Shown one piece after another: positions 3,009 through 19,422 of a stretch of DNA of 35,094 nucleotides. A program made the position numbers and the translations under genes. The notes below the pieces were generated by a model. The model had not been told where the DNA came from. It saw only the letters and a program-made list of their open reading frames with translations, and did not search any database. Position 1 is the first letter of the stretch. Each line of letters begins with the position of its first letter. The DNA lies in contig JAISEL010000097.1 in the NCBI GenBank assembly GCA_031264185.1, positions 1-35,094 on the forward strand. The letters run 5' to 3'. Origin of the DNA: Deltaproteobacteria bacterium. GTDB taxonomy: Bacteria; Desulfobacterota; Desulfarculia; Adiutricales; Adiutricaceae.

Positions 3009-6000
3009 CTAAACGGTCCTGCCGACTTTCAGGCAGGTCATGTTTAAGTCAGCCTGGGAAAACAGAGTGTATTTATCAATTGTGGTCCGAAAGAGATCGG
3101 CTGCGTACAGGCTGGCTCCGGTGAAATCAGCCCCGGACAGGTCGGCACCGCCTAAAACTGCCTTAAACAGATCGGCCCTGACCAGTCTGGCGCCTTTTAA
3201 GCTGGCCCCGAATAAGCCGGTTTCCTTTAAAACGGCCCCGGAAAAATTAGTTCCGCTTAAATCCGCTCCGCCTAAATCGGCTTTAGAGGCCTTGACCCCG
3301 ATAAATTTGGCGCCTTTGGCCTGGGAATTAAAAAGAAGAAAGTCGTTTAAATCGGACAGGGACAAATCGGCCCCGGCCAGCTGGCAGGCTAAAATCCGCA
3401 GATTAATACCCTGAACTCTGGTCAGATCGGCGCCGGCTAAATTGCTTTCTTCCATGTAAGCCTGATCTAATTTGGCTCCAGACAGATTGGCGCCCTTTAA
3501 AATGACTTTAGTAAAACCGGCTCCGGCCAGTTCGGCTCCGGAAAAATCGGCTTTCTCCAGGGACATATCCCTGAATAAGGCCCCTGTTAAAACGGCCCCT
3601 TTGAACCGGCCCGAGACCAGGGTTTTGGCCAGAACCGCTCCGGGGGCCTTAAGGCCGGAAAGATCCAAAGCCTGCATATCGGCTCCGCTCAGATCGGCTC
3701 CGGTCAAATTAATTCCGGCCACTTTGGCAGAACCGAAAACGGCTCCGGTTAATATGGCTGAAGTCAGATTGGCTCCGGTTAAATTGCTCCGGTCAAGCTT
3801 AACTCCCTCTAAAACCGCCCCGCTGAAATCGGCTCCCGCCAGACCGGCCCCGGATAAATCTGACATCCTTAAGTCCGCGCCTTTAAAATTGCGGCCGGCC
3901 AGGTTAAGATCCTTCAAATCCAGGCCGGCTAAAGCCTTGCCTTCAAAAGAAGCCCAGGAATCGGCCAGATATTTTTCTACCTCCTGGCGGTCGGTAAAAA
4001 CAGCCGGATCTTTGGCCTCGGCGTCTTTATCTTCAGGCTTAGGGCCGGCAGTCTGTTCGGGTTCTTTCGGTTCAGGGGGCTTGGGCGGAGATGACTTAAT
4101 GTCCAGTGGCTGGGGATTTAAAATGTCCAGAGTCCCTATTACGGCCAAAATCTTCGGGTTACTGAGTCCGGCCATTAAAGCGATATCCTTAAGGGAATTT
4201 ACGTCAGCCGGGGGGGCTTTTCTTAAAGTATGGATTTGAGGCAGAGCGGCGGCCAGTTCCTGGTGCTCGGGATCCAAAGCCAATGTATCCAATGCCCGGC
4301 CCAGATCGTCATCGCTCCAGGCAATTTTTTTTATGTCCTGAGAGTTTTTTTGGAACTTACCGGCCATGGTCCCTGGAAAAAGACCCATAGCCGCATCCAG
4401 TTCCGGGCCTAATGAGGCTAAATGGGCGTTTTTCTCAGCCCAGGAGAGATCTTTAGTGATCTCGGAAGAGGCATCCAGCTTTTCCAGAGCGGCCAGAACC
4501 TGTTCTCCATTATCCGGACTGAGTCCCAAAGCGGCCCAGTCAAATGCGGGCGGATTGGCCAGCGCCTCCAGTTGGGAAGGCGTTAAAAAGGCCTGAAGCT
4601 GTTTGGCCGGGTCACCGGAAAAAAGAAATTTAATTTTCTGGGCCAGTTCGCTTCCCGCCTGAGGGGAAACGCCGATTAAAGCGGCTAATTCCTGGCCGTA
4701 CCGGTCGACGGCCTCAAAAAAATCAGCCTGGGTTTCAAAAGCCGTCTGATCCGGCAGGGGCAAAGAAGCTGCCTTTTGCAGGTCAGAAGCCGTCTGAGGC
4801 GAAAAGCCCTGACTTATTAAATGCTCTTGCACACCCGCTTCGGACGGATTGACCCCGGCCGCCATTTTTTCTATCCTGGTCATGTCCTGAGTGTTTTTTT
4901 CTATCCTGGCGGCCACATCGCTCATTTGCAAGTCGCTCAGACCACCGGCCGCCAGAGCGGAGCTGATCTCCGGCCAGGATTCGGCTAAAATATCCTGGGC
5001 TTTCCGGCCGACCTGAGCCATGGCAGGCGGGGGGGCCAATTTGGGAGGCTCAGGCAACTTAGAATCCTGAGGCCTGACGGCCACGGAAGACTTGGCTTCC
5101 GGCGCCGGCGGACTTTTAGGAGCCTCTGATTCCAACGGCGGCGGCGGCATTAAAGGCGCCTCCTCGGCCTTGACCGCTATAGCCCGGGCCAGAAGAATAT
5201 CGGCCGATTCAGGCTTACTGTCCAACGGCTCCAAAACGGCCAAAAGAGTTTCAATGTCTGAGGCCTTCTGGTCAGCCGCCTTAACCGAGGCGTGCCAGAA
5301 AATTAAGGCGCTCTCAAAAGCCGGGAAGAGCCAGACTGTATCTAAATTAGGCGCGACTTCCGAAACCTTATAATCCTTATTATCACTTCTCCTTAACATT
5401 ATCCGCAGCCTTAAACCCGGCAGTGCCGCCGATAAAACGCCTCCCTCCGGCCGGACATTTTTAAGATAAAGCCTTTCGTCACCTCGGAAGAATCCGGAAC
5501 CTAAGATCTGGGCCTTTTGGGCTAAATTAAAAAAACCGTAATCAAAATCCGGCGGAAATCCGGGCCAGTATTTGTTCTGCCACTCATCGTCAAAAGTGCC
5601 CAAATTTTTAAGTCCGGCCGTTGTTCTCGGACAGGGCAAAGGCGAAGCCGGTCCGTCTGCGACCTGACCTTGACCGCCGTCTGAATCCGGCCGGAACTCA
5701 AAAACCTGAGGCGAAGTCAGAGTCCCCATCGGACCGGCCGTTTCGCCAGGTTTTATGCCGTAGGGGTTTAAAGCCTCATCGTAAAACGTTTTACCCCAGC
5801 TTAATGGCATTTCATTAAAAGATAAAGGCCCCTGTTTTTCGTATTTTTCCCCAATGACCAAAAAATCCCTGGCCAGTGTTCCGACCTTAAGCGAGACATG
5901 AACCGGCTGGGCCGAGGCGTTGGAACTGACAGGGTAAGCTGAACAGGCGCAGAGAAACTCGCCCTGTTTTTTGCTTATCCCTGAGTCCAACGAAAGACCT

Positions 6001-6176
6001 TGAGCCTGATACGGCAGAAGAGACAAAACCGCTGAGGCGTAGACTGAGGCCGGGTCAAGGACTGACCCGTCACGGAGAGACAGGCCCAGAGCAAAAGTCA
6101 GGGCCAGACGGTCCAATCCCCGGTGCAGATAATTTTGCCCGGTAAGAAACAGACTGTTCGGCAGGATTTTTTTCAT
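3009..6176 (-). CDS. DUF2169 protein fused to a pentapeptide-repeat domain (T6SS accessory)
   Basis: 1055 residues and the last gene of the operon, 9 nt after vgrG. Residues about 20-315 match DUF2169: a GEFL motif, the NPYGIKPGE segment, then FDDEWQ-WPGFPPDFDYGFFN, FRGDERLYLKNVRPEG and LPGLRLRI. DUF2169 proteins are encoded with VgrG and PAAR-like proteins and are thought to act as adaptors or chaperones loading effectors on the spike. A Pro/Ala-rich linker (about 340-390) and a helical Ala/Leu-rich section (about 390-720) follow. Residues about 745-1040 are consecutive pentapeptide repeats of A(D/N)LSG type, predicted to form a right-handed quadrilateral beta-helix. The ATG is preceded by GAGACAG. 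Cytoplasmic or spike-associated; target unknown. Confidence 0.85.
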   Translation of the reverse strand: MKKILPNSLFLTGQNYLHRGLDRLALTFALGLSLRDGSVLDPASVYASAVLSLLPYQAQGLSLDSGISKKQGEFLCACSAYPVSSNASAQPVHVSLKVGTLARDFLVIGEKYEKQGPLSFNEMPLSWGKTFYDEALNPYGIKPGETAGPMGTLTSPQVFEFRPDSDGGQGQVADGPASPLPCPRTTAGLKNLGTFDDEWQNKYWPGFPPDFDYGFFNLAQKAQILGSGFFRGDERLYLKNVRPEGGVLSAALPGLRLRIMLRRSDNKDYKVSEVAPNLDTVWLFPAFESALIFWHASVKAADQKASDIETLLAVLEPLDSKPESADILLARAIAVKAEEAPLMPPPPLESEAPKSPPAPEAKSSVAVRPQDSKLPEPPKLAPPPAMAQVGRKAQDILAESWPEISSALAAGGLSDLQMSDVAARIEKNTQDMTRIEKMAAGVNPSEAGVQEHLISQGFSPQTASDLQKAASLPLPDQTAFETQADFFEAVDRYGQELAALIGVSPQAGSELAQKIKFLFSGDPAKQLQAFLTPSQLEALANPPAFDWAALGLSPDNGEQVLAALEKLDASSEITKDLSWAEKNAHLASLGPELDAAMGLFPGTMAGKFQKNSQDIKKIAWSDDDLGRALDTLALDPEHQELAAALPQIHTLRKAPPADVNSLKDIALMAGLSNPKILAVIGTLDILNPQPLDIKSSPPKPPEPKEPEQTAGPKPEDKDAEAKDPAVFTDRQEVEKYLADSWASFEGKALAGLDLKDLNLAGRNFKGADLRMSDLSGAGLAGADFSGAVLEGVKLDRSNLTGANLTSAILTGAVFGSAKVAGINLTGADLSGADMQALDLSGLKAPGAVLAKTLVSGRFKGAVLTGALFRDMSLEKADFSGAELAGAGFTKVILKGANLSGAKLDQAYMEESNLAGADLTRVQGINLRILACQLAGADLSLSDLNDFLLFNSQAKGAKFIGVKASKADLGGADLSGTNFSGAVLKETGLFGASLKGARLVRADLFKAVLGGADLSGADFTGASLYAADLFRTTIDKYTLFSQADLNMTCLKVGRTV

Positions 6177-6185
6177 AGTTCTGTC

Positions 6186-9100
6186 TCAACCAAGCATAAT
6201 GGCGGCGCTGGATATCTTAACGCTCACGGCTCCGACGGAATGGGTTATGCCCGAGGCATCCAGGGCCATTTTGTTAGCCCCGACCTGGATGGCGATCTGG
6301 ACTGAATTTTTCAAATTGACCGCGCTAGGACCCAAAGTCAGGCAGGAATTGGGATTCAAGGCCAGTTTAACCGATGCGGACTCCATGGTCAGACCGGCTT
6401 GGGCGTTGAGCTGCATCACGGCTTTGGTGTTTTCCTGAAGCGCTATTTTGGTGTTCTGGCCCTCCTGAACAGTAGTCCCGGCTTCAGCCAAAGTGATCCG
6501 CCGGTCCAAAGGTCCTCCGGGTCTTATATTTCCGTTCTGAATAAGCTCAATGTTGCTGGCATCTGTTGTCTGAAGTGTAATATGATTGCCGCCTCCTATG
6601 GTCTTTAAAAGTATGCCCGAAGTCATCACGGGATCATAGTCGACCGGCACCTGCGCTCCCAGTTGGTGAACGGCCGCATCCAAAAGAATTCCTAAGGCTA
6701 CGACCTTGTCCGGCCCGTCGGGCAGATCGTACCAAATAGAGTATAATCCTCTCAGGTTCTGATAAATTCCTCTGTGTAACTCATACACTAATTCATTCGG
6801 TTCGTCCACACCGGCTATTAGCTGGATCTGTTTGCCGCTTTTGGCCACCAGAGCTTCAAAGGACTGGAGACTAATCTCAAGGGCTCTGGTCCGGGCCAAT
6901 TCGGCGTTAATTAAGACCGTTTTTGAGGTCTTGTAACTGGGGGTGGGGGTGGAGGCGCCGCCGTAGAGATTCTTCAAAACCTCCGGCTTCAGCAAATCAG
7001 TCGGGGCGTTATCTTCCGAAATGCCGTGCCTTAAGACATCACCCAGGGAAGCCACGGCAGATTCTATGATGGCCGGGCCGTAGCCGGACACGGAGACGGC
7101 ATCATTGGACTTTATATTGACGTAGGAATCGGAGTTATGGATTAAAATACCTTTGGCCGGGCCGCTAAAGTTCCCCATCGCCTTAAGCAAAACATATTCC
7201 GAAAGGAATTGGGCAATGACATCCACCGCTTTTGAGCCGTCGGCCAGGCCGACGGCAAAACGCTTCATAAACTTAGTATCACCAGTCGGGGCAGCATCCA
7301 ACTGACTGTAGTCGCCTTCGTGGTCTGCGTACTCATTGTAATCGTCATAATTGCGGTGGCCAGTATCCGCATCTTTGGTGGCGGTCACGAGATTGCCCAG
7401 CAGCATGCAGATATTGACCATGTTCTTACTGGTGTCTATTTTACTTTTCAGGGCCGATTTAGCCCCGGCCCCGGAAGCCAGCAGACTTACCAAGTTGGAG
7501 TGCGGTCTGACCGGCGATGCCTCCAATTCTTTCTTGGCCGCCAAAAAAGAATGAAACTTGCTGATAGCCTCCAGACTCAAACTCAGAACTCCGCCGGCTT
7601 TGGTGGCTATAGCCGAAGGCTTGGTAGGGCTTTTATCGCTTTTCGTCTGATCGTCCCCTAAAGAGGCTCCCTCATCGTAAGCTACCTTTATTGTTTGAAG
7701 AAACGCAGCCAACTTCACATAAGAGTCAGAGTCAACACTGATTACATGCTGGGTGCCGGACACGAACGAGGTTTTGTTGGCCGTAGAGGTCGAGGAGTTG
7801 AAGTTGATTATATTAAAATCATCGGCCTGAATAAGGGCATTGGTCGGATTTTGGAGCTTGGAGGTAAAAACAATGGCCCCCCGGTCAGAACCGCTGGTGA
7901 AAGACATTTTCTGGCTCTCGGAATCGTCGGAAAAAAGAAGGGAGCTGCCGCCTTTTGTACCTAATCCGCTAAAGGTCCGGGTGGACGAATTTACGACATT
8001 GTTTGTTTCAGCATTGGCCACAGCTCCGGCTATAACCGGCCGATCGGGATTGCCGTCCACAAACGTCAGAAGGACCTCCGCTCCGGGAGTGAGAGGAAAA
8101 TTCTGGCCGTACCCGCTGCCGACGTAAGGCTGGGCCATACGGATCCAGGCAGAAGCTTTGCCGCCGCCCCGGCCGGAGATATCCAAAGGCAGTAAAATTT
8201 TATAGCGGCCGTAACCGTCGATTTCCGGGGACTGACCGCTCCCGGCCCCGTCAATCCAGGCCGTAATGGAACCGGCAATTTTTTTGCGCGGTATAGTCCT
8301 CTGGGGCCGGTACTGCGTACTGAGCTTAACGGCCGTCAGGTGATGGGTGAAATTTGTATCCTCATATTCCAAATCCAGGCCCAGCTGCGAGGCTATACGG
8401 CCGGCCTGGGACCCGGAAAAATCGGTCCGAACCGTCAGATAGCGGTCATTAAAGCCGCCCCAGGGATGGCCGGACAGAGTAAACGTCAGTCCAGGTTTAA
8501 AGCCCGGCACATAGGTGGCTAAAAAACAGCTTTCCGAGGCCGTTAAAAATTCTTCTTTGCGGATATTGCCCAGACGCCGCCCTTCGGCTTCGGTCGTGAA
8601 GTTTTCTCCGTAAAGATGGATCTCCCCCCGGCCCCGCTCGGAAACCTCAATCAGGACTTCCAAAGGCCGGTTGGGATCTTCCCAGTTGTAATCTTTTAGC
8701 AAAAGAGTTCCGGGTGGCATTTGGTTTTCGGCCCGAAAATCAAATGCCACCGGATTAAGATCGGCCGGATTAAGACCAGAGGCGGTGACGTAAGTTAAAT
8801 TCAGTTCATTGTCCCCGTCCAGAATTGGGGGGAACTGGACTGAAGAATCGGTAATAACGGCCACCTCTCCGTCCTGGGTCTGGTCGAAATAAAGTCCCAA
8901 GCCCTCAAACTGCATGGTCCGCAAGACAAAATCCAAAAGATCCTCGTCGTACTGAAAAACAAATTCTCTTTGGGGATAACCGCCGTTTTGAGCCTCAAGG
9001 CGGTACCTGTCCGGGGCCAGACCGCCGAACTTAAAACTTTCTTTTATGACATCCAGACTGGTTAAATCCAAATGGATACGGTTTTGGATCTGACCGGCTA

Positions 9101-9443
9101 AAAGGCCCAAAGATGGCACCAGCTCCAGTTCCAAAAGCGTATAGCTGCCGGCCTGGATCCCGCAGGTCAGTTTGGTCAGAATTCCGGTCCAGACTGTCCT
9201 GGAAGCCTGAGCCCCTGGCCCGGTGTGGCTGCCGCCGTTATCGACAGTCAAAGAGCCGGGGGTGGCAAAAAAATCTGACCACTGGGCATTTTTCAGAGCC
9301 GCAGTCGGCACCAGCACTGTCACCGACAGACGGTAGAGGCTGTTTAATGCGGCTTGCCCGGAAAACTTCAGGACCTGGACGCTTATTTCCGGATGGGAAA
9401 CAAAAGTAAAACTGAAAGTTACTGGATTTGCTGCGTTGGCCAT
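6186..9443 (-). CDS. vgrG: VgrG type VI secretion spike protein, long form
   Basis: 1085 residues from ATG 9443, which has GGGG 8 nt upstream; a TTG four codons earlier is less likely. The N-terminal third is gp27-like, with a FQYDEDLLDFVLRTMQFEGL core around residue 175. The gp5-like OB-fold module follows: a DGYGRYKILLPLD segment, WIRMAQPYVGSGYG and PGAEVLLTFVDGNPDRPVI, the last a VgrG hallmark. After about residue 490 comes a long tail. It begins with the usual SRTFSGLGTKGGSSLLFSDD stretch. An unusual 300-residue helix-rich insertion follows (about 590-900) before the repetitive beta-prism-like end. VgrG trimers form the puncturing tip. The insertion could be a cargo-binding or effector part; no catalytic motif was recognised. 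Confidence 0.92.
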   Translation of the reverse strand: MANAANPVTFSFTFVSHPEISVQVLKFSGQAALNSLYRLSVTVLVPTAALKNAQWSDFFATPGSLTVDNGGSHTGPGAQASRTVWTGILTKLTCGIQAGSYTLLELELVPSLGLLAGQIQNRIHLDLTSLDVIKESFKFGGLAPDRYRLEAQNGGYPQREFVFQYDEDLLDFVLRTMQFEGLGLYFDQTQDGEVAVITDSSVQFPPILDGDNELNLTYVTASGLNPADLNPVAFDFRAENQMPPGTLLLKDYNWEDPNRPLEVLIEVSERGRGEIHLYGENFTTEAEGRRLGNIRKEEFLTASESCFLATYVPGFKPGLTFTLSGHPWGGFNDRYLTVRTDFSGSQAGRIASQLGLDLEYEDTNFTHHLTAVKLSTQYRPQRTIPRKKIAGSITAWIDGAGSGQSPEIDGYGRYKILLPLDISGRGGGKASAWIRMAQPYVGSGYGQNFPLTPGAEVLLTFVDGNPDRPVIAGAVANAETNNVVNSSTRTFSGLGTKGGSSLLFSDDSESQKMSFTSGSDRGAIVFTSKLQNPTNALIQADDFNIINFNSSTSTANKTSFVSGTQHVISVDSDSYVKLAAFLQTIKVAYDEGASLGDDQTKSDKSPTKPSAIATKAGGVLSLSLEAISKFHSFLAAKKELEASPVRPHSNLVSLLASGAGAKSALKSKIDTSKNMVNICMLLGNLVTATKDADTGHRNYDDYNEYADHEGDYSQLDAAPTGDTKFMKRFAVGLADGSKAVDVIAQFLSEYVLLKAMGNFSGPAKGILIHNSDSYVNIKSNDAVSVSGYGPAIIESAVASLGDVLRHGISEDNAPTDLLKPEVLKNLYGGASTPTPSYKTSKTVLINAELARTRALEISLQSFEALVAKSGKQIQLIAGVDEPNELVYELHRGIYQNLRGLYSIWYDLPDGPDKVVALGILLDAAVHQLGAQVPVDYDPVMTSGILLKTIGGGNHITLQTTDASNIELIQNGNIRPGGPLDRRITLAEAGTTVQEGQNTKIALQENTKAVMQLNAQAGLTMESASVKLALNPNSCLTLGPSAVNLKNSVQIAIQVGANKMALDASGITHSVGAVSVKISSAAIMLG

Positions 9444-9555
9444 GATTCGCCCCAAATAAGGTCAAACATAAACCACTGACCTTATGGATATGTAGTTGGA
9501 TTTAAAATTTCCGAAAAATTCGCCGGACAAACTGACTGCATTTATGCCTGTAATT

Positions 9556-10995
9556 TTAACGCACCACAAAATCGACTTCGTCCAGCCGGCCCACCAGAGA
9601 AAGAGTAAACGAAGCGCCCATAAACGTCAGATGAGGGCGGACATAAAGGGCCATCTGGCGCCAGCCCGGCACACCCGGGACATCCCGGACCTCAACCCGG
9701 GCTTGCCTGAGTGGCCGGCGGCCTCTCAGTTCCGGGGACGGACTGTCCATGTCGGTCACATACTGGTTCAGCCAGGCGTTCAATTCCTTTTCAATAACCT
9801 GCCGGTCTTTCCAGGTGCCGATATTCTCCCGCTGGATAACTTTTATATAGTGGGCCAGGCGGTTGACAATCATCATGTAAGGCAGAATGGTGGAGACGAG
9901 ATAGTTGAAAGACGCCTCTTCCCCGCCGCCGGTATCGTCTCGGAATGATTTAGGAATCAGAACAGTGGGGGCCGAATAGACCGCCGCCTGACTGGGATTT
10001 TCCCGAAGCGAGACCGAAATAAAGCCGCTGTTGGCCAGAGTCTGCTCCATCCTTTCGCCGATTCTGGCCTCCAGAGGAATGCGGCTCTGGACACGGCCCA
10101 TTGATTCGTAGTGCCACGATTCCAAGCCTTCTATCAGACCGCCCCCGTCTAAACCGGTAACATTGGTGCACCATCGGTATTTAGCAAAGCTTTTGGCCAT
10201 CAAAACGCCCATTAGAACCGATGAATAGCCCCAGACATATGAAGTTTCGGCCTCGGTGCTTTCATCGTAATTAAACCCTGGCCACCTTCTGGACCTGGGA
10301 TTGTAGGGTATCCGGGTCAGGAACCCGGGCATGACCAAAGCCAGGTAGCGGGAATTCTCCTGATTTCTCAATGCCTGCCAGGCCGAGTAATTGGGCTGAG
10401 ACAAAATGGCCTCCAAATCCTGGACGGCCATAAGTTCCCCCCAGGACTTAAGCCCGAAAAAATCGGCGGCCACCGAAACCACAAAAGGAGCGTGAGCCAG
10501 AGCGCCTAAATTGGCCATGGCCCGCATTAAGGACAGATCTTCAGGCTGACTGGACAGTTCGTAAGCGCCTATGATCACTCCGTAAGGCTGACCTCCGAAC
10601 TGGCCGTACTCCATGGAGTAAATCTTACGGAACATTGACGAGCGAATTATCTCCGGAGCCTCGGAAAAATCCTCGCAGACTTCGCTTTTCTGGGCATCCA
10701 AAAGATAGACCTCAATATTTTCCCGGCTGTCGGCCCGGTCGACCAGGTACTTTAAAGACCTCCACGTCCTTTCCACATCCAAAAAATCCGGATGGTGGAG
10801 AATGGCGTCCAATTGACGGCCAAGAGCCGAATCCAAACCGGCCACCAGCCCGTCAATTTCCAGAAGCGTCCGGTTAAGATCGGCAAAATTAGGCTCCATG
10901 GGCAAAGCAAAAGCTAAAGCTTTAACCAAAGACTCCTTACCGTCGTCGGACAGATCGGCCAGCAGACCTTCCAGACAGGAGTTGCCTGAAGTCAA
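9556..10995 (-). CDS. TssC-like T6SS sheath large subunit, orphan copy
   Basis: 479 residues, about normal TssC length. Family landmarks appear in order: LDAILHHPDFLDVERTWRSL, then VYLLDA, then FRKIYSMEYGQFGGQPYGVI. Further on come HAPFVVSVAADFFGL, SRYLALVMPGFLTRIPYN, WCTNVTGLDGGGLIEGLE and the AHYIKVIQRENIGTW segment. It ends with VPGVPGW and LYVRPH. TssC normally forms the contractile sheath with TssB, but no tssB is here. It sits between the PAAR-like and VgrG genes. The start is TTG (no ATG fits), and TTGA overlaps the stop of the DUF4150 gene by 4 nt, so the two are probably translationally coupled. It may be a specialised sheath-like or adaptor paralogue. Confidence 0.9.
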   Translation of the reverse strand: MTSGNSCLEGLLADLSDDGKESLVKALAFALPMEPNFADLNRTLLEIDGLVAGLDSALGRQLDAILHHPDFLDVERTWRSLKYLVDRADSRENIEVYLLDAQKSEVCEDFSEAPEIIRSSMFRKIYSMEYGQFGGQPYGVIIGAYELSSQPEDLSLMRAMANLGALAHAPFVVSVAADFFGLKSWGELMAVQDLEAILSQPNYSAWQALRNQENSRYLALVMPGFLTRIPYNPRSRRWPGFNYDESTEAETSYVWGYSSVLMGVLMAKSFAKYRWCTNVTGLDGGGLIEGLESWHYESMGRVQSRIPLEARIGERMEQTLANSGFISVSLRENPSQAAVYSAPTVLIPKSFRDDTGGGEEASFNYLVSTILPYMMIVNRLAHYIKVIQRENIGTWKDRQVIEKELNAWLNQYVTDMDSPSPELRGRRPLRQARVEVRDVPGVPGWRQMALYVRPHLTFMGASFTLSLVGRLDEVDFVVR

Positions 10996-11405
10996 TTGGC
11001 TATCACCTTGACCTGGGCACCCATGGGACAGGAGCCGGTGGTGTTGAAAAGAGCGTCCCCGTTATGGAAAGTCATTGCTCCCTGGGACACTGCCCTTTTG
11101 CCTTCCAAAAAGACTTTCAAACTGGCCGTGGCCGGTGAAAATGTCCCCGGCCCTATGAATTTTCCGGAAACAACCCCGCCTGCGGTGCCGGCCTCATCGC
11201 CCTGGGACATGGGCACTTTGCTCTGGGCGGTCAGGCCCTGGGCTCCATCAATTAAGACTTTCTGGGAGGCTGTGGAAGGATCGGCCTGATTGAGCTGAAA
11301 CATATTGGGCAGAGGCATGGGCACCGGCCCGGCCGGGGACGGCACCTTGCAGACATCCGGAGCCAGAAACGTGGCCATTCCGCCTTTGACAGTCAAAGCA
11401 AACAT
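10992..11405 (-). CDS. DUF4150 PAAR-like protein
   Basis: 137 residues. The DUF4150 layout is clear: the VCKVPSPAGPVPMPLPNM segment near the start, then KVLIDG, MSQGDEAGTAGGVVSG, KVFLEGK and a closing CPMGAQVKVI. DUF4150 proteins are PAAR-like tips that cap VgrG. This one has no extra toxin domain. It lies 4 nt after the DUF3540 gene and overlaps the TssC-like gene by 4 nt. Upstream TTGGGAT is a weak ribosome site. Confidence 0.9.
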   Translation of the reverse strand: MFALTVKGGMATFLAPDVCKVPSPAGPVPMPLPNMFQLNQADPSTASQKVLIDGAQGLTAQSKVPMSQGDEAGTAGGVVSGKFIGPGTFSPATASLKVFLEGKRAVSQGAMTFHNGDALFNTTGSCPMGAQVKVIAN

Positions 11406-11409
11406 AATT

Positions 11410-12015
11410 TTATCCCAACCTTAAATCCCGCCCGTCAATTTTGACCGATCCGCTGGCTTTTAAATCCAGGCCTTCAGCCCTGGCCATAAGATCCTCCTGA
11501 GCCGTAATCCGAATCGACTGACCGGAAACTTTGGCCGCCCCGTCAACTTTTAAAGTCAGGTTATGGGACGTGCCCAAAAACGACCTGCAGACCGAGGACA
11601 CCAGACCGGCCAGGCAGTGGACGATCCGGAAATCCAGTTTTAAAAGGCGCCCGAAGAGACTGACCTGATCGGCTTTAAACTGGATTTTTTGCGTGTCTAC
11701 TGAAAAATGTTTTGTCTTAAAGCCTAAATCGGCTGACTCAATAACCACCCGGTCCGGCAGATTAAGGGCGGCTTTTTTGGTCAGGGTCCTTTCCAGAACA
11801 GCCGTAATATAGACTTTTTCCCGGTCAAAATAAGCCAGAACCAGATCGCCTTTTTCCGGAACCAGGAGACAGGAGGACGCCATTCGGGCTTCAAACAAAG
11901 CTTCACCGTCGGAGATTAAAAAGCCGCCTTCTTTGGCCTCAGCCAGGCGGACTGTCTTTAATCCCAAGGGGAGTCTTTCCTCCGGCAGAAGATCGGAATT
12001 AACAGCTAAGGGCAT
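11410..12015 (-). CDS. DUF3540 protein (T6SS accessory)
   Basis: 201 residues. The DUF3540 pattern is visible: an N-terminal beta domain ending LVLAYFDREKVYITAVLER, then the LNLPDRVVIESADLGFKTKH segment, then a helix containing LLKLDFRIVHCLAGLV. The final repeated strands end in GSVKIDGRDLRLG. The family occurs with DUF2169, DUF4150 and VgrG in type VI islands; its biochemical role is unknown. A GAGG Shine-Dalgarno lies 6 nt before ATG. It is second in the operon. Confidence 0.88.
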   Translation of the reverse strand: MPLAVNSDLLPEERLPLGLKTVRLAEAKEGGFLISDGEALFEARMASSCLLVPEKGDLVLAYFDREKVYITAVLERTLTKKAALNLPDRVVIESADLGFKTKHFSVDTQKIQFKADQVSLFGRLLKLDFRIVHCLAGLVSSVCRSFLGTSHNLTLKVDGAAKVSGQSIRITAQEDLMARAEGLDLKASGSVKIDGRDLRLG

Positions 12016-12053
12016 ACTTACCTCAAAACTTCAGGCGGAACGCCTGTAAAAAA

Positions 12054-12983
12054 TCAGGCCGGTCGGGTCTGAAAATCTTCAGCCCTGGCCAGATCCGGAT
12101 CAGTAAAACGGGCGCCGTCGGTCCGCCCGGCGGCCGAAAGTTCAAGATCTACGGTCCGGTGAAAATTGGCATAGGAAAAATCGGCCCCGGCTAAAACGGC
12201 CAAAGAAAACCTGGCCTGGGAAAAATCGCTGTAAGGACTGAGCAGACCTTTTAAATTGGCGTGACTTAAATCGGCTCCGGAAAAAATAGCCTTGTCGGCC
12301 CGAGCGTTACTTAAATCGGCTCCGGCCAGTTTAGCTTCCCGAAAAAAAGCCCCGGTCAAAGTCTGGCCTCTTAATTTGGCCCCGGTCAGATCGCTTTTAG
12401 AAAAATTGGCGCAGGTCAGATCTGTATCTTTGGCCAGAAGGCCCAAAAGTTTAGTTTGCGTGGCCTGAAGCTGAACAGCCGAGGTGCTTTCCAAGCTGAT
12501 GTCCTCAAAAGCCGATTGCCGGATGATCAAAAGTTCCAATTTCGAGCCTTTAAAGCAAGCAGATCCGAACCGGCAGCCGTGCAGAAGGCCTGACGATAAA
12601 TCGGCTTTAAAAAAGTGGGCTCTGGGGCTGAAGTCACAGTTAAAAAACGTCACCCGGCTGAAATTTATCCCGGCAAAGTCTCCCCCGGTCAGTAAACAGT
12701 CTTTGAAACTGGCCCGGCTGAAATCTGCCTGGCTAAGGGAACCTAAAAATTTGGTCCTTAAAAAGCTGTTGCCGGAAAAAACAGCCCCTATAAAGTCGGT
12801 ATTTTGAAAAACGCAGTCCACAAACCGGACATCATTAAACGAGGCTCCAGATAAAGAACAGCTATCAAAGACCAGAGAGCTGAAGTCCATGCCTGAAAAA
12901 CTCTGGCCGCCAAGATCCAAGCCGGCCAGAGGACGCCCATGATTCATATGTTCGGTTATTAGACCTAAAATATCCTGGGACAT
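12054..12983 (-). CDS. Pentapeptide-repeat protein (T6SS island)
   Basis: 309 residues, nearly all A(D/N)F/L-type pentapeptides from about residue 25 (SFSGMDFSS, SLSGASF, then later ADLSNARADKAIFSGADLSH). The result should be a single beta-helix rod with no catalytic domain. Cys-rich repeats in the middle (DSCSL, VDCVF, KDCLL, NCDF) differ from the Gly/Ala-rich repeats at the end. It is the first gene of the operon, with GAGGG before the ATG. Together with the fusion protein at 3009-6176, the operon encodes two pentapeptide rods, which may be structural partners in loading. That pairing is inferred from context only. Confidence 0.85.
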   Translation of the reverse strand: MSQDILGLITEHMNHGRPLAGLDLGGQSFSGMDFSSLVFDSCSLSGASFNDVRFVDCVFQNTDFIGAVFSGNSFLRTKFLGSLSQADFSRASFKDCLLTGGDFAGINFSRVTFFNCDFSPRAHFFKADLSSGLLHGCRFGSACFKGSKLELLIIRQSAFEDISLESTSAVQLQATQTKLLGLLAKDTDLTCANFSKSDLTGAKLRGQTLTGAFFREAKLAGADLSNARADKAIFSGADLSHANLKGLLSPYSDFSQARFSLAVLAGADFSYANFHRTVDLELSAAGRTDGARFTDPDLARAEDFQTRPA

Positions 12984-14438
12984 GTAAGACCCTCTGGAAC
13001 GATTGGTTGGAGACCTTGAGATTATGACCGGCAGTTATTCAATTAATTTTATAAATTATTATATTTAGCAGCATTTGACTGTTTTAAAATACAGTTTTAT
13101 CCATAAATGATTTACCAATAAATCAAAACCAAAACAACAGCAAAATTGAATCTGAAAATTGACTGCCGCCATCTCTGTCTGGTCAGGGGCTGGGGAGCCA
13201 GGCGAGAAATTAGCATTTTAAGAACCAAATTATGACTCTATCCTACTGTAAATCTTGATAAATATCAAGCCTTGAATGCTTTTAATTTCCGGCCCAGGCG
13301 ATTTTTAGGCGCCTAATAAGTAATCAGGGGAACATTGGCACTAACTGTACCTTGGTCCAACCGGAAGTCAGGACATAACTTCCCAAATGTTTTGAGTCCT
13401 GATCAGACCAGATAATATAAGCAAGCCTGATAGATTTCAAGTAAATTTTTTGTAAAACAGTAAATTATTACTAATATTATTGTAATATTTTACTTTGAAT
13501 AATAAGCTTATCGTCAGTAATGAAATGTAAATAATCCTCTAATGAATCAACGGCCTGAGTAAAATTTTTTTGACATGAAGATTAAGTATCAGTGTCCTTA
13601 TGTTTTTGGCCTGTTTGTCCGGACTTGGAAAATATCGGCAGAAGGTTCATAAATTTTTGAGCCATGGAACATTTCACTTTTTTAATGGTCAGATAAATAT
13701 GGCCTATTGTCCTGCCTTCCCTGAGACTTCCTGAACAAAAGCCGGCACATATACTTTCCCTGGCCGGGGCCGGGGAACCGTATTTTACAGCCTAGCTTTT
13801 CCGCTCCGCTCACAATCCTTTCCGGCTAATTTTCAAATAAAAAGCATTACAATTATCTCTATATAAAACTATTATATTTTTTAAACTTAACATTATTAAT
13901 CTATTTTCAAAATTTATTGGTTCCAAGGCTCTATCCGCATCCGCAAATTGGAGGAGGCCTCCGGCTCTGTTTATTAGCTTACGGATTTTCTCCAGGAAAA
14001 CGCTCTCTTTTGAAGGTGCCTTTTTTGAACTAATATCTTGACGCTTCCGTAAAGCTCCGTTAGTGGACAATTTCTGCTTTTTAGCCTCAAGCCTTCAGAA
14101 TGTTCCGATCTTGGCCTGAAACTTGGGCTCCCGGACATTGGATTAAATGCTATTTTTCATTTTCCTCCCCGGATCCTTTGGTATTGGTGAAGAAAATTCT
14201 TTACAGTACATATCAAAATCTGGAATTATAATTTGGAATAATGGCCAACACCGGCCGAGGATTAAAGCAAAAACTGGAGACAACGTTTAGAGCTCATAAT
14301 CAGGACCAGGCGGACTATGCCAGGCAGCTCCAAGTATATTCCTGAGTATTTTGCAAAAGAAATGAAAAGCAATTTCTGAACAGTAAACTCAACTATAATA
14401 TCTCTTAATTTCTCTTACTGCTGCCTGCGGAGCGAATT
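12984..14438. other. Divergent intergenic region, no intact gene
   Basis: This separates the minus-strand T6SS operon from the plus-strand WYL-rtcB operon. A TATAAT on the minus strand (13058-13063) could serve the T6SS operon, but no good -35 is seen. Small hairpins include CTTGAT/ATCAAG near 13255-13270, TCAGGAC/GTCCTGA near 13370-13400, and a GC-rich TTTCCC/GGGGAA hairpin at 13755-13777. A minus-strand TTG-started 86-codon frame (13810-14070, containing KIRKLINRAGGLLQFADADR) has no ribosome site and is probably a remnant. Confidence 0.5.
14394..14399 (+). promoter_or_regulatory. Possible -10 box of the WYL-rtcB-prfH operon
   Basis: A perfect TATAAT lies 40 nt upstream of the GTG start of the WYL gene. 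The only -35 candidate is the poor TTTCTG about 15 nt upstream. Confidence 0.3.
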
Positions 14439-15437
14439 GTGCCAGATAAATGGGATGAAGCCAAACCGGCGGAAAAACTGCTGTCTCTCTACAGCCTGCT
14501 GATGATCTCCAGGCGGAAATTGAGTCTGACCGAACTTTCCAGTGAGCTTAAGTGTTCCAAACAGGCAGTTCTCCGTTTAATTACCCAGCTGGAGGCCTCC
14601 AGGTGCGGTAAAGTGATTCTTTCCAAACAGGGCCGGGAAAATATGTACCGTTTGGACCGACCCAAAGAAATACCCAAATTGTCTTTGACCTCTGACGGCA
14701 TCAGAGAATTAGCCATGTGCCGCAATTTCCTCTGCCATGTTCTGCCGCCTGACATAAGAAAAAGTTTGGATTCGACCATTCGCCAGGCCTCTGTCTTTGT
14801 CCCTGAGGGGATCGATCCCACCCGGGTCATCCATTTAGGACGGGCGGCCATCAGAGGCCGAATTGATTACACTCCTTTTGCCGAAACTCTGGAAACCTTA
14901 ATAAAGGCCATCTCTGACCGCCGGATATGCGATGTGACTTACCGCCCTAATTTAAAAGGGCCGGTCAAGAAGTACGCGTTCGCTCCAAAGCAATTGACGG
15001 CTTTTCACGAAGCCCTGTACGTGGACGGCTGGATGCTGGATAAAAAAGATCAGAGCCGTCTTTATGACAACCCCGCACTTTTGGCTGTCCACCGCTTCCA
15101 ATCGGTGGAAATCTCAGGACGTTCCAGCTCTAAGTTGCCGGGCATTGAGCAGGAAGAAATCGGTTTTGGTCTGATAGGCGAACCTTTTAAGGCCAAAATT
15201 AAATTCAGTTCCGAAGCCTCTACTTATGTGGCCGAAAGGGAGTGGAGTCTGGACGAGGAAAAAATCATCCACAATGACGGCACTTTAACATTGAGTTTGA
15301 CGGCCAAAAGCTCAGAAGAGTTAATTTCCTGGATCCTAAGTTTCGGTGACCGGGCTACTGTCCTTTTTCCCAAATGGCTGAGGCGGGAAGTAATGGCAAA
15401 AATAGAAAATTTGCTGAATAACTACTCAAAAGATTGA
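14439..15437 (+). CDS. WYL-domain transcriptional regulator of the RNA-repair operon
   Basis: 332 residues starting at GTG (CGGAGC 6 nt upstream). Residues about 8-70 form a winged helix-turn-helix, with the recognition region around KCSKQAVLRLITQLEASRCG. Residues about 145-225 match a WYL domain: YRPNLKGPVKKYAFAPKQLT, then LYVDGW where the Trp-Tyr-Leu triad normally lies. A C-terminal WCX-like region follows (FKAKIKFSSEA to LFPKWLRREV). WYL proteins often sense nucleic acid or nucleotide ligands. Its position directly upstream of a AAA gene, rtcB and prfH suggests that it controls them in response to RNA damage. A dead paralogue lies at 18751-19390. Confidence 0.85.
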   Translation: MPDKWDEAKPAEKLLSLYSLLMISRRKLSLTELSSELKCSKQAVLRLITQLEASRCGKVILSKQGRENMYRLDRPKEIPKLSLTSDGIRELAMCRNFLCHVLPPDIRKSLDSTIRQASVFVPEGIDPTRVIHLGRAAIRGRIDYTPFAETLETLIKAISDRRICDVTYRPNLKGPVKKYAFAPKQLTAFHEALYVDGWMLDKKDQSRLYDNPALLAVHRFQSVEISGRSSSKLPGIEQEEIGFGLIGEPFKAKIKFSSEASTYVAEREWSLDEEKIIHNDGTLTLSLTAKSSEELISWILSFGDRATVLFPKWLRREVMAKIENLLNNYSKD

Positions 15438-15467
15438 CATAAGCACTGACTGAAGGAGAGGGGGCTT

Positions 15468-16328
15468 TTGGCGAGTATGTTGAGGCGGCCACTCCGGGTG
15501 CGCCATAGGGATCCACCGACTGAATAGTTACATTTGGCGTTAATCAACGACGGGAACCGAAGATCCCTAAATGGCCAGTCAGAGGAGCCTTTTGCTCTGG
15601 ACGGAGTCTGTCTCAAAGGCCCAATGTATGAATTTTTGGACCGCCTGTAAAATATGACTCCATCTTGAGAAGCGGTAAGCCGGCTGAACCGGGCGGAGGG
15701 AACATTTTTGTTTCACGGCCCGCCTGGAACCGGTAAATCCGCTCTGGCCAAGCATATTGCCGGCACCTTAGAAATGAAATGCCGCTTGACCAAAGCTAAC
15801 GGTCTGCTAAACTCTTTCGTCGGCGGGGCGGAAAAACGGGTCAACGGGGCTTTTCAAAAGACTCAGCAAGACGAGGCCGTTTTAATAATTGACGAAACCG
15901 ACAGCTTTCTTTTTGACCGCAATACGTCCGTATGCTCCTGGGAAACATCCGCTGTCAACCAATTTCTGATCTGTTTGGAGGAATGCCGGTCAATTTGCGT
16001 CTGTACCGCCAACCGTTTGGAAATGCTCGATCCGGCGGCCATCAGGCGTTTCAGCCGTAAGGTTGAGTTCACTTATCCCTCTCAGGTTCAGCTCAGATCT
16101 CTCTGCCGGACTCCATTATCTCCTCTGGCCGGCTCAGACCCGGATGACAATGATTTGAAAGCCCTGGATTCAATGACCATAACTGCTCCAGGCGATTTTC
16201 ACGCTGTCAAAGCCAAATACTGGCTGGCCGCCCCCGGCGCCCTGAAGCACTCGGAACTTATTGGGGCTCTGGCTCAGGAAGAAAAACTTAAGAAGGAAGA
16301 TTTCCAAAAGCGGGTTGGATTTCAATAG
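15468..16328 (+). pseudogene. AAA ATPase, N-terminal half broken by three nonsense codons
   Basis: One unshifted frame runs from TTG 15468 (after GGAGAGGGGG) to 16328. It is broken by TAG 15525-15527, TAA 15648-15650 and TGA 15666-15668. The last open part gives a good AAA core: LFHGPPGTGKSALAKHIAG (Walker A), VLIIDETDSF (Walker B), and a TANRLEMLDPAAIRRFSRKV sensor/arginine-finger region. The C-terminus KKEDFQKRVGFQ looks complete. The upstream peptide SEEPFALDGVCLKGPMYEFL looks like real coding sequence interrupted by stops. A short protein could still start at TTG 15708, but it would begin only 3 residues before the P-loop. The start lies 30 nt after the WYL stop and the end 8 nt before rtcB, so it was an operon member. 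A nonsense-decayed gene is most likely. Confidence 0.75.
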
Positions 16329-16336
16329 GAACGGAT

Positions 16337-17413
16337 ATGACGGTTAAAATAATGACCAACGACGGACTTTGGCTGGAGGGCGGTGCCCTGAAACAGCTGG
16401 AGACTTTGGACCGCTACCCTGGGGTTGAACTGGTGGCCGGTCTGCCGGATCTCCACGGCGGACGCTCCCCGGTCGGTCTGGCTCTTTTGGGACGTGATTT
16501 TGTCTATCCCTACGTGGTGGGTAACGATATCGGCTGCGGCATGGCTCTTTGGGAAACCGATATTCCGATCCGCAAATTTAAACTCGACAAAGCCGAAAAG
16601 ACTTTGACTGCTTTTGGCCGCCTGGGCAGGCTGGACGAAGACGAACTGGCTGAGTACAGCTCTTTGATAGGTTCCTTTGATCATCGGTCAGACATCGGCA
16701 CCATAGGCGGCGGCAATCACTTTGCCGAATTTCAAAAAATAGAGACTGTCTTAGAGCCCGAGACAGCCGATAAATTATCCCTCAGTCAGGACAAAATATT
16801 CCTTTTGATCCACACCGGCTCCCGCAGTTTAGGTCAATCCATCCTTAACGCCTTTAGCAGCGAAACCGGCTATGAACTGACCTCCGCAGAGGCCGGAGAA
16901 TATCTCAGTCAGCACACTCTGGCCATGAATTGGGCCGTTTTAAACAGACGGTTGGTTGCCGAAAGACTGCTGACCAAATTGGGCGGAAGCTGCCGGCTGA
17001 TTTTGGATTTGCCCCATAATTTCGTCGAACGCCGCGGCCCAAACCTTATCCACCGCAAAGGAGCAGTCTCTTCGGAAAGGGGGCCGGTCCTGCTGCCAGG
17101 CTCAAGAGGCGCTTTTTCCTATATTTTAGAGCCTGAGCCGGACACTTCGGTCTGGGCTTACTCCCTGTCTCACGGGGCAGGCCGCAAGTGGGCAAGATCA
17201 ATGTGCCGGGAACGTCTTTCCAAAAAAAAGATGAAAACAGATCTGACCAGGACCGAGCTGGGCAGCCGGGTAATCTGCTATGAAGCCGAACTTCTTTTTC
17301 AGGAAGCTCCGGAGGCTTATAAAAACATCCAGTCAGTCATTGAGGCCATGGTCGCCAATCAGGCGGCTAGGACGGCCATAGTCTTCAGACCTCTTTTAAC
17401 GTTCAAAGGCTGA
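16337..17413 (+). CDS. rtcB: RNA-splicing ligase RtcB family protein (PrfH-linked type)
   Basis: 358 residues, shorter than housekeeping RtcB (about 400-480). RtcB joins 2',3'-cyclic phosphate (or 3'-phosphate) and 5'-OH RNA ends using GTP and Mn2+. Metal- and GMP-binding motifs are present: PDLHGG (37-42), GNDIGCG (62-68, Cys67 metal ligand), GTIGGGNHFAEF (121-132), HTGSRSLG (159-166), LPHN (225-228) and the guanylated His in SHGAGR (His279). Start ATG has AGGAA upstream. It lies 8 nt after the AAA frame and 10 nt before prfH. In the known RtcB2-PrfH pairing, the ligase reseals 16S rRNA cleaved in the decoding centre after PrfH has released the stalled peptide. That role here is inferred from family and neighbours. 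Confidence 0.93.
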   Translation: MTVKIMTNDGLWLEGGALKQLETLDRYPGVELVAGLPDLHGGRSPVGLALLGRDFVYPYVVGNDIGCGMALWETDIPIRKFKLDKAEKTLTAFGRLGRLDEDELAEYSSLIGSFDHRSDIGTIGGGNHFAEFQKIETVLEPETADKLSLSQDKIFLLIHTGSRSLGQSILNAFSSETGYELTSAEAGEYLSQHTLAMNWAVLNRRLVAERLLTKLGGSCRLILDLPHNFVERRGPNLIHRKGAVSSERGPVLLPGSRGAFSYILEPEPDTSVWAYSLSHGAGRKWARSMCRERLSKKKMKTDLTRTELGSRVICYEAELLFQEAPEAYKNIQSVIEAMVANQAARTAIVFRPLLTFKG

Positions 17414-17423
17414 GGAGAGAAAA

Positions 17424-18113
17424 TTGAAAAACTGGCAACTAAGTTCCGGCCGAGGACCGGCGGAATGCGAATTGGCTGTGGGTCTGTACCTTAAGTACCT
17501 GGCTGCCGAATATCCGGCATTGAAGGTACTGTCCTGCCAGGGCGAACACGAGGTAACCGCCGGTGGTCTTAGGTTCACCGCTTATCAGAGCGTCACTTTG
17601 AGCCTGCCGCCGGACATAAGGCTGCCAGAGGGGAGCTTAAAATGGAAGAGCAAAAGCCCTTTCCGGCCCAACCACGGCCGCCAAAATTGGTTTTTTCAGA
17701 TCAGTTCTGTTCAGGATGCCGTCAACCTCCCATTTGAAAACAAAATGAAAAAAGCTGACATTAAAAGCCGGGATCTGCGCTTTGAGACCTTCCGAAGTCC
17801 AGGTAAAGGCGGCCAAAACGTTAACAAAGTTGAAACCGGGGTAAGAGTTGAGCATTTGCCCTCAGGCCTCATCGCTGCCTCCATCACGGCCAGAACCCAG
17901 CAGGGCAACAAAAGTCTAGCCGTAGAGCGTCTCGTGGAAAAAATGAATGCCAAAAATATGGCCCGGGCCTGTCAGATAAAAAAAGTTCAGAGACACCTTC
18001 ATGATGAACTGATCAGAGGCAACCAGGTCCAGACGTTTGAGGGTTTAGATTTTAAGCCGGTCAATAGTGACCGGGATACCGGGGATGACCAGATTAAATG
18101 TAAACAGACTTAA
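17424..18113 (+). CDS. prfH: Peptide chain release factor homologue PrfH
   Basis: 229 residues from TTG 17424 with GAGGAG 6 nt upstream. The N-terminus WQLSSGRGPAECELAV and the central HGRQNWFFQI are PrfH hallmarks. The peptidyl-hydrolysis loop RSPGKGGQNVNK has the GGQ at residues 129-131. It lacks the stop-codon-recognition domain of RF1/RF2, as the family does. The C-terminus is basic and Gln-rich (RARACQIKKVQRHLH-like), longer than in E. coli PrfH. PrfH releases nascent chains from ribosomes damaged in the 30S decoding centre. It is the last operon gene, with MITE copy 2 starting 57 nt after its stop. Confidence 0.93.
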   Translation: MKNWQLSSGRGPAECELAVGLYLKYLAAEYPALKVLSCQGEHEVTAGGLRFTAYQSVTLSLPPDIRLPEGSLKWKSKSPFRPNHGRQNWFFQISSVQDAVNLPFENKMKKADIKSRDLRFETFRSPGKGGQNVNKVETGVRVEHLPSGLIAASITARTQQGNKSLAVERLVEKMNAKNMARACQIKKVQRHLHDELIRGNQVQTFEGLDFKPVNSDRDTGDDQIKCKQT

Positions 18114-18169: not shown

Positions 18170-18272
18170 TATTACTCCGGCGGATAATTTTGACCATAGA
18201 TAAAATTAAATGCGCGAAAGTCAAGGTGAACCCGAAGAAAATAGATTCTCATAATTATCCGCCGGGGTAATA
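18170..18272 (+). mobile_element. MITE copy 2 (103 bp, TA-flanked)
   Basis: Same ends as copies 1, 3 and 4 (TATTACTCCGGCGGATAATT and its near-complement), with TA on both sides. Its interior matches copy 3, and it is inverted relative to copies 1 and 4. It lies just downstream of prfH, where its hairpin could act as an mRNA 3' end or stabiliser. Confidence 0.85.
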
Positions 18273-18750: not shown

Positions 18751-19390
18751 ATGGAACAAAAAAGGGGCGGACTCTAAACCGGCCGAAAAGTCACTGTCGC
18801 TGTGCACATTATTGATGTCCTCCAGAAACCAGAAACGAACTAAGCCTAAAAGACATTTTAAAAAAATGCCGGACCGCTCCAAACAAACTGTCTTGCGCCT
18901 GAACAGCCAACTGGAAACCTCAAGATTTGGCAAAACAGTCCTTAACAAGAAAGGCCTGGAATCATACTGCAGTTTAAACAGCAAACTCAAAGATCTTTCC
19001 AGGGCAAACTTGACTCCGGAAGGTCTTAAGGAACTGGCTTTATGCCGCAATTTCTTAAGTCATATTCTGCCTGCTGAAATGGAAAAAATCTGAACTCTTA
19101 TCCAGGCTACCGCTTTTGCCCCGGAGGGAGTCGATCTAAGTCAAGTTAACCAAACGGGGCGAGCAGCCTTCAGAGGCCGCATTGATTATTCGCCTTTTGC
19201 CGGCAGCAGGTATGCTGGAGACCTTAATCAAAGCAGTATCTCACAAGGCATCTTTGAAGGGTCCGGTCAGTAAGTTCTAATTTGCCCGCAAACAGTTGAC
19301 TGTTCTTCACGAGGCTCTTTATGTTGACGGCTGGACCGTAACCAAAGGAGAAGAGAAACTTCTATTCCCACGGCATGAAATTCTGATAAT
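18751..19390 (+). pseudogene. Decayed duplicate of the WYL regulator
   Basis: Fragments in changing frames match the intact WYL protein in order. They are KPAEKSLSLCTLLMSSR (for KPAEKLLSLYSLLMISR), KQTVLRLNSQLETSRFGKTV, then LALCRNFLSHILPAEMEKI followed by a stop at 19091. Similarity continues with APEGVD, GRAAFRGRIDYSPFAG and, after a frameshift, LHEALYVDGW. The match ends near 19390, just before an IS630 remnant (19423-19680), and the C-terminal third is lost. A second rtcB-type locus, or a tandem duplication of the regulator, once stood here. Confidence 0.85.
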
Positions 19391-19422
19391 GCTGCAAACC
19401 GTAATTATTGCAGAAATTTAAG

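What the first reader, a model, noticed from the sequence alone, without database searches (positions are those of the whole stretch)
14439..18113. RtcB-PrfH RNA-repair/ribosome-rescue module with a WYL regulator and a AAA partner
Seen: WYL regulator, AAA frame, RtcB with all metal and GMP motifs, and PrfH with GGQ lie head to tail with gaps of 8-30 nt. Known: PrfH releases peptides from ribosomes cut in the 16S decoding centre, and its RtcB partner reseals the break. Inference: WYL plus AAA form a damage-sensing or remodelling arm not described for the well-studied E. coli rtc system, where RtcR is used.
Basis: partly seen in the sequence, partly recalled or inferred. Interest (0 to 1): 0.75.

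Follow-up and report, generated by a model that had tools for sequence, protein, structure and literature searches.

The report
Ribosome-repair pair beside broken AAA gene
This is an intact two-gene kit of a known type for rescuing and resealing toxin-cut ribosomes, next to a regulator gene and the broken remains of an ATPase gene; regulator and ATPase form a widespread pair of their own that only occasionally sits beside the repair kit.

Summary
WYL, RtcB and PrfH are present and intact at the stated places. RtcB is the PrfH-linked kind (TIGR03073, over its cut-off) and PrfH has its GGQ motif. About 468 N-terminal residues are gone, two in-frame stops precede the P-loop, and the gap to WYL is 270 nt, not 8-30. 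It is most likely a pseudogene.

One relative (genome G340, another genus) has an intact tight operon tandem-AAA / WYL / rtcB / prfH. AU tests indicate that the two neighbourhoods were assembled independently. The other 24 rtcB2-type loci examined have neither WYL nor tandem-AAA nearby. By contrast, tandem-AAA genes have a WYL gene within 5 kb in 34 of 54 loci, including Pseudomonadota plasmids, and rtcB2 nearby in only 2 of 54.

So WYL + tandem-AAA is a real recurrent module, but not a dedicated arm of RtcB-PrfH, and in this genome its AAA half is probably dead. Most likely function here: a standard RtcB2-PrfH ribosome rescue-and-repair pair under WYL control (control inferred).

The parts
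14439..15437 (+). WYL-WCX transcription regulator, HTH_11 + WYL + WCX, GTG start, intact
   Evidence: Pfam PF08279, PF13280, PF25583 over cut-off; 60% identical to the WYL next to rtcB in G340, 56% to a second copy on contig C7 of the same genome
15528..15668 (+). remnant of the linker/AAA2 N-terminal part of a tandem-AAA gene, ended by TAA 15648-15650 and TGA 15666-15668
   Evidence: ungapped tblastn of intact G340 AAA residues 469 onward through both stops
15669..16328 (+). remaining AAA2 domain of the tandem-AAA gene (Walker A, Walker B, sensor 1 and arginine residues kept); about 468 N-terminal residues (N domain and AAA1) missing; probable pseudogene; TTG 15708 is the first usable start
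   Evidence: PF00004 E 1.2e-24; 51-57% identical to intact copies; conserved columns largely kept
16337..17413 (+). RtcB2-type RNA ligase (PrfH-linked kind), intact
   Evidence: TIGR03073 373 bits, cut-off 271.8; PRK09588 414 bits, cut-off 407; active-site residues read from sequence, solved RtcBs align
17424..18113 (+). PrfH peptide chain release factor with GGQ (residues 129-131), TTG start, intact
   Evidence: TIGR03072 139 bits, cut-off 166.65; PDB 9mor and 7sa4, both PrfH, are the best matches
18752..19421 (+). degenerate second WYL gene (in-frame stops, frameshift), pseudogene
   Evidence: tblastn 45-49% identity in two frames with stops

Best explanation
The locus carries a complete RtcB2-PrfH pair. 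PrfH would enter ribosomes whose 16S decoding centre was cut by a ribotoxin and hydrolyse the peptidyl-tRNA; RtcB2 would then reseal the 2',3'-cyclic phosphate / 5'-OH break (steps known for E. coli ATCC 25922, inferred here from homology). The upstream WYL-WCX protein is most likely a ligand-responsive transcription regulator of the downstream genes, by analogy a repressor relieved by nucleic-acid damage products (inferred). WYL came with a tandem-AAA partner as a separate two-gene conflict-island module. In this genome the AAA gene has lost its N-terminal domain and first ATPase domain and carries two stops, so it is probably not part of a working mechanism, although its 3' end still joins WYL to rtcB on one strand. 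In the relative G340 the AAA is intact; there a Cdc48-like double-ring ATPase may assist, for example by remodelling damaged ribosomal or toxin-bound complexes (speculative).
For: RtcB and PrfH families and motifs. 24 of 26 rtcB2 loci examined have prfH beside them. The E. coli pair protects from colicin E3 (PMC9223846). AAA truncation and stops, no other close copy in the genome. Intact AAA-WYL-rtcB-prfH operon in G340. Tandem AAA with WYL in 34 of 54 loci, with rtcB2 in 2 of 54; WYL near tandem AAA against WYL near rtcB2 control loci, Fisher p about 9e-8. WYL-WCX regulators of defence genes: CapW represses CBASS (PMC9122588).
Against: The AAA fragment keeps its catalytic motifs and a 219-codon open frame, has a good Shine-Dalgarno before TTG 15708 and ends 8 nt before rtcB, so a shortened single-AAA product cannot be excluded. 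Its excess of private substitutions over WYL is only suggestive (47 against 37 in AAA2; 53 against 68 in WYL; chi-square p about 0.09 worked by hand). No expression data; no palindromic operator was found upstream of WYL and the promoter scan was at chance level. PrfH scores under the curated cut-off.
Confidence: 0.75

Rival explanations
1. One reading: WYL, AAA and RtcB-PrfH form one dedicated four-gene ribosome-damage response, with AAA and WYL as sensing/remodelling arm, in the window as well.
For: Same-strand, tight spacing in the window and in G340, where AAA is intact; two apparently independent juxtapositions of the same WYL/AAA subfamily with rtcB-prfH would be unlikely by random placement.
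Against: Window AAA lacks about 468 residues and has two in-frame stops; 24 of 26 rtcB2 loci lack both partners; AAA occurs without rtcB2 nearby in 52 of 54 loci.
Confidence: 0.15
2. The shortened AAA is a functional single-ring ATPase made from TTG 15708 and translationally coupled to rtcB.
For: GGAGG 8 nt before TTG 15708; catalytic motifs and 219 open codons kept; 8-nt gap to rtcB.
Against: The start falls inside the first strand of the P-loop domain; the part before it is lost; the full-length relatives aligned have two AAA domains with both P-loops invariant; stop-interrupted or broken AAA copies occur elsewhere in the family (L124, L136).
Confidence: 0.12
3. rtcB-prfH sits beside AAA-WYL only because both are mobile conflict genes that pile up in the same islands; no shared regulation.
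For: Sporadic, independent assembly; different gene order in the two genomes; AAA-WYL next to BREX-2, Sir2, ADP-ribosylglycohydrolase and nuclease genes on plasmids.
Against: Operon-like same-strand spacing (about 0-50 nt) in G340; in both loci rtcB directly follows the module on the same strand.
Confidence: 0.35

Closest known systems
RtcB2-PrfH (RFH) operon of E. coli ATCC 25922 and sporadic other bacteria
   Same: RtcB ligase of the PrfH-linked family directly upstream of PrfH, same strand, short gap; same motifs; sporadic occurrence
   Different: Here preceded by a WYL-WCX regulator and an AAA remnant; Burroughs and Aravind 2019 (PMC6514570) list TPR, pol-beta NTase and zinc-ribbon accessory genes in the main text, not WYL or tandem AAA (the supplement could not be read)
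E. coli RtcR-RtcBA repair system
   Same: RtcB ligase under a dedicated regulator that may sense RNA damage
   Different: RtcR is a CARF sigma-54 activator with a different domain make-up; here WYL-WCX, no RtcA, a different RtcB subfamily, and PrfH
CapW / BrxR family WYL-WCX regulators of defence systems
   Same: HTH + WYL + WCX order; next to conflict genes; a tandem-AAA/WYL pair lies beside BREX-2 in Sphaerotilus
   Different: Sequence distant (no PDB match at E 0.01); no palindromic operator found
ADP-ribosylglycohydrolase-centred conflict systems with WYL regulator (PMC9503650, section 3.8)
   Same: Two plasmid AAA-WYL pairs are followed by an ADP-ribosylglycohydrolase and a PD-(D/E)XK nuclease (Leisingera, Fuscovulum)
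   Different: That paper's main text does not mention AAA; no ADP-ribose enzyme in the window operon
Cdc48/p97-like type II AAA ATPases
   Same: Two AAA domains in tandem; best PDB sequence matches are Cdc48/VCP
   Different: About 250-residue N-terminal region without a Pfam match, bacterial, associated with WYL; the window copy has only the second AAA domain

Membership tests
RtcB2-PrfH module | RtcB of the release-factor-linked family | tested here: met
   TIGR03073 373 bits against cut-off 271.8; PRK09588 414 against 407
RtcB2-PrfH module | PrfH family by curated score | tested here: inconclusive
   TIGR03072 139 bits, cut-off 166.65; 8 of the 9 rtcB-linked prfH genes of the same family also score below that cut-off; best PDB matches are PrfH
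RtcB2-PrfH module | GGQ motif, no RF1/RF2 N-terminal domain, gene directly downstream of rtcB | tested here: met
   GGQ at residues 129-131, 229 aa length, 10-nt gap
RtcB2-PrfH module | acts on ribosomes cut in the 16S decoding centre | not testable with these tools
   needs biochemistry
RtcB ligase | metal-binding and guanylylated histidine residues | tested here: met
   D64, C67, N127, H128, H159, H227, H279 in sequence; blocks around H128, H159, H227 and H279 align to a solved RtcB
CapW/BrxR-type WYL regulator | HTH-WYL-WCX architecture | tested here: met
   PF08279, PF13280, PF25583
CapW/BrxR-type WYL regulator | palindromic operator in the promoter region | tested here: not met
   no inverted repeat found at 14071-14440; a weak test, but not filed as a member
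tandem-AAA/WYL module | ~700-750 aa protein with two AAA domains | tested here: not met
   window keeps only AAA2, two stops; intact in G340, L033 and L089
tandem-AAA/WYL module | WYL gene within 5 kb | tested here: met
   231 nt from WYL stop to the remaining AAA frame; over all loci 34 of 54
RtcR-RtcBA system | RtcR (CARF-sigma54 activator) and RtcA | tested here: not met
   neither present among the four frames or the adjacent genes scanned

The most novel reading that the evidence does not exclude
Tandem-AAA + WYL is a general, mobile conflict-response switch whose downstream slot takes interchangeable damage-reversal enzymes (ADP-ribosylglycohydrolase, Sir2, and, at least twice independently, RtcB2-PrfH ribosome repair), the WYL protein sensing damage products and the double-ring ATPase extracting or remodelling damaged complexes.
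Probability: 0.2. Interest if true: 0.65.

Novelty: new variant of a known kind. Interest (0 to 1): 0.4.

Why it matters
How RtcB-PrfH pairs are switched on is, to my knowledge, not established. A WYL regulator next to the pair gives a testable candidate. The wider result, a WYL/tandem-AAA pair seen in 34 of 54 loci across distant bacteria and on plasmids, points to an uncharacterised conflict module.

Tried and rejected
Rfam scan and tRNA search of the window: nothing. Viral contigs with the AAA fragment: none. Read-through of the AAA stops by a changed genetic code: rejected, because TGA, TAG and TAA all end neighbouring frames (WYL and RtcB TGA, AAA TAG, PrfH TAA). Mere sequencing error: unlikely, since two stops and about 468 missing residues coincide. 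Shared ancestry of the four-gene arrangement in window and G340: rejected by AU tests. AAA next to rtcB-prfH in a Bacillota MAG (L042): a different AAA with AAA_lid_6. Promoter scan at chance level. Full text of Burroughs and Aravind 2016 (NAR) and Tian 2022 (PNAS) was not held.

Full report
What is there. WYL (14439-15437), RtcB (16337-17413) and PrfH (17424-18113) are intact open frames on the + strand. WYL has HTH_11, WYL and WCX domains over Pfam cut-offs. RtcB is of the PrfH-linked family, over both NCBIfam cut-offs. PrfH scores 139 bits on TIGR03072, under the 166.65 cut-off, but so do 8 of the 9 rtcB-linked prfH genes of the same family, and its best PDB matches are the two solved PrfH sequences.

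The AAA frame is a remnant. The open frame 15669-16328 matches only the C-terminal third of a ~750-aa protein. The intact relative in G340 (L033:3957-6197, minus strand) aligns from residue 469 without a gap through TAA 15648-15650 and TGA 15666-15668. The N-terminal domain and the first AAA domain were not found in the window and have no close copy elsewhere in the genome. The remaining AAA2 keeps Walker A, Walker B, sensor 1 and arginine residues, and deviates from family-conserved columns about as often as intact close copies (7 against 5-6 of 24). It has more private substitutions than the neighbouring WYL would predict, but only weakly so. This fits a fairly recent loss. A shortened product from TTG 15708 cannot be excluded. 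A degenerate second WYL copy lies downstream of prfH.

Relatives of the arrangement. In G340, another genus of the same family, the order is tandem AAA (747 aa), WYL, rtcB, prfH, then a second, more distant WYL gene, all on one strand with short gaps. Eight other genomes of the family carry rtcB2 without either partner nearby; in one of them, G399, only 711 bp upstream are on the contig, so distant linkage there is unknown. Sixteen loci outside the family (genome contigs and plasmids) also lack both. In total 2 of 26 rtcB2 loci have WYL and tandem AAA within 5 kb; 24 of 26 have prfH. The two without prfH are G417 (L097) and L045, whose rtcB2 is cut by the contig end.

Independent assembly. The window RtcB is sister to that of G399 (100/99), and a window + G340 clade is rejected (AU p 0.0003). 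The window WYL is sister to a second WYL in its own genome (98/99), and a window + G340 clade is rejected (p 0.003). Gene order also differs. The WYL tree has few rows, and an earlier tree with the pseudogene included was unresolved, so this is good but not final evidence.

The WYL/tandem-AAA module. Tandem-AAA matches were found in 19 of 37 family genomes, often in 2-4 tandem copies, in 29 of 395 genomes of the phylum at a strict threshold, and on plasmids of Desulfosarcina and many Pseudomonadota. A WYL gene lies within 5 kb in 11 of 21 family loci, 13 of 20 other phylum loci and 10 of 13 plasmid loci: 34 of 54, 30 of them within 1.5 kb, most often divergent outside the family. These 54 were chosen as best matches, not at random. 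The rtcB2 loci serve as controls (Fisher p about 9e-8). Plasmid neighbours include ADP-ribosylglycohydrolase (Leisingera, Fuscovulum), Sir2 and a BREX-2 locus (Sphaerotilus), and PD-(D/E)XK nucleases. Many pairs have no obvious cargo.

Interpretation. RtcB2-PrfH is a known counter-ribotoxin pair; deleting it makes E. coli ATCC 25922 sensitive to colicin E3 (PMC9223846). Accretion of accessory genes around it is known (PMC6514570), but WYL and tandem AAA are not in that paper's main-text list. WYL-WCX regulators are known repressors of defence operons (CapW, PMC9122588) and co-localise with defence islands (PMC9122601). So here WYL is most plausibly a regulator of rtcB-prfH, and AAA a dead relic of the imported module. 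The alternative that the neighbours merely share an island remains open. The novel reading, a general WYL/AAA switch with exchangeable repair cargo, is not excluded and has two apparently independent juxtapositions in its favour.

Limits. The window is from a draft assembly (166 contigs, 97% complete). No expression, binding or biochemical data were available. No structure was predicted.

Noticed in passing
window 18170-18272 (also 31566): A ~103-bp inverted-repeat element (24-nt arms, 92% complementary) directly downstream of prfH; its arm ATTACYCCGGCGGATAATT occurs 130 times forward and 132 times reverse in the genome (control 0), so roughly 130 MITE- or REP-like elements, some at contig ends.
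   Followed up: partly
L033:5600-6199 and L089:3700-4299: The N-terminal region of both intact tandem-AAA genes drops to 17-38% GC inside genes otherwise of 54-74% GC, the same in both paralogues. Perhaps a swapped or fast-changing recognition domain. Unexplained.
   Followed up: partly
window 3009-12983: Type VI secretion genes on the - strand end 1.5 kb upstream of the WYL gene: DUF2169 with pentapeptide repeats, baseplate-hub/VgrG-like, VipB sheath, PAAR-like, DUF3540, pentapeptide protein.
   Followed up: partly
L124, L127, L128, L131, L136: Tandem-AAA genes occur in arrays of 2-4 head-to-tail copies with broken copies among them, a sign of rapid turnover.
   Followed up: partly
L120:9049-10429, L123:12646-15824, L134:241-1696: A family of ~208-aa proteins (two members scanned, no Pfam match) lies beside tandem-AAA genes in 2-4 tandem copies.
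   Followed up: partly
L089:8078-9139: A DUF932 protein lies about 1 kb downstream of an AAA-WYL pair that has no rtcB.
   Followed up: no
L043:9068-9607: An SF0329-family gene (PF25753) sits between rtcB and prfH in a Defluviitaleaceae genome.
   Followed up: no
L097:6511-7602: G417 has an rtcB2-type gene without a neighbouring prfH.
   Followed up: no
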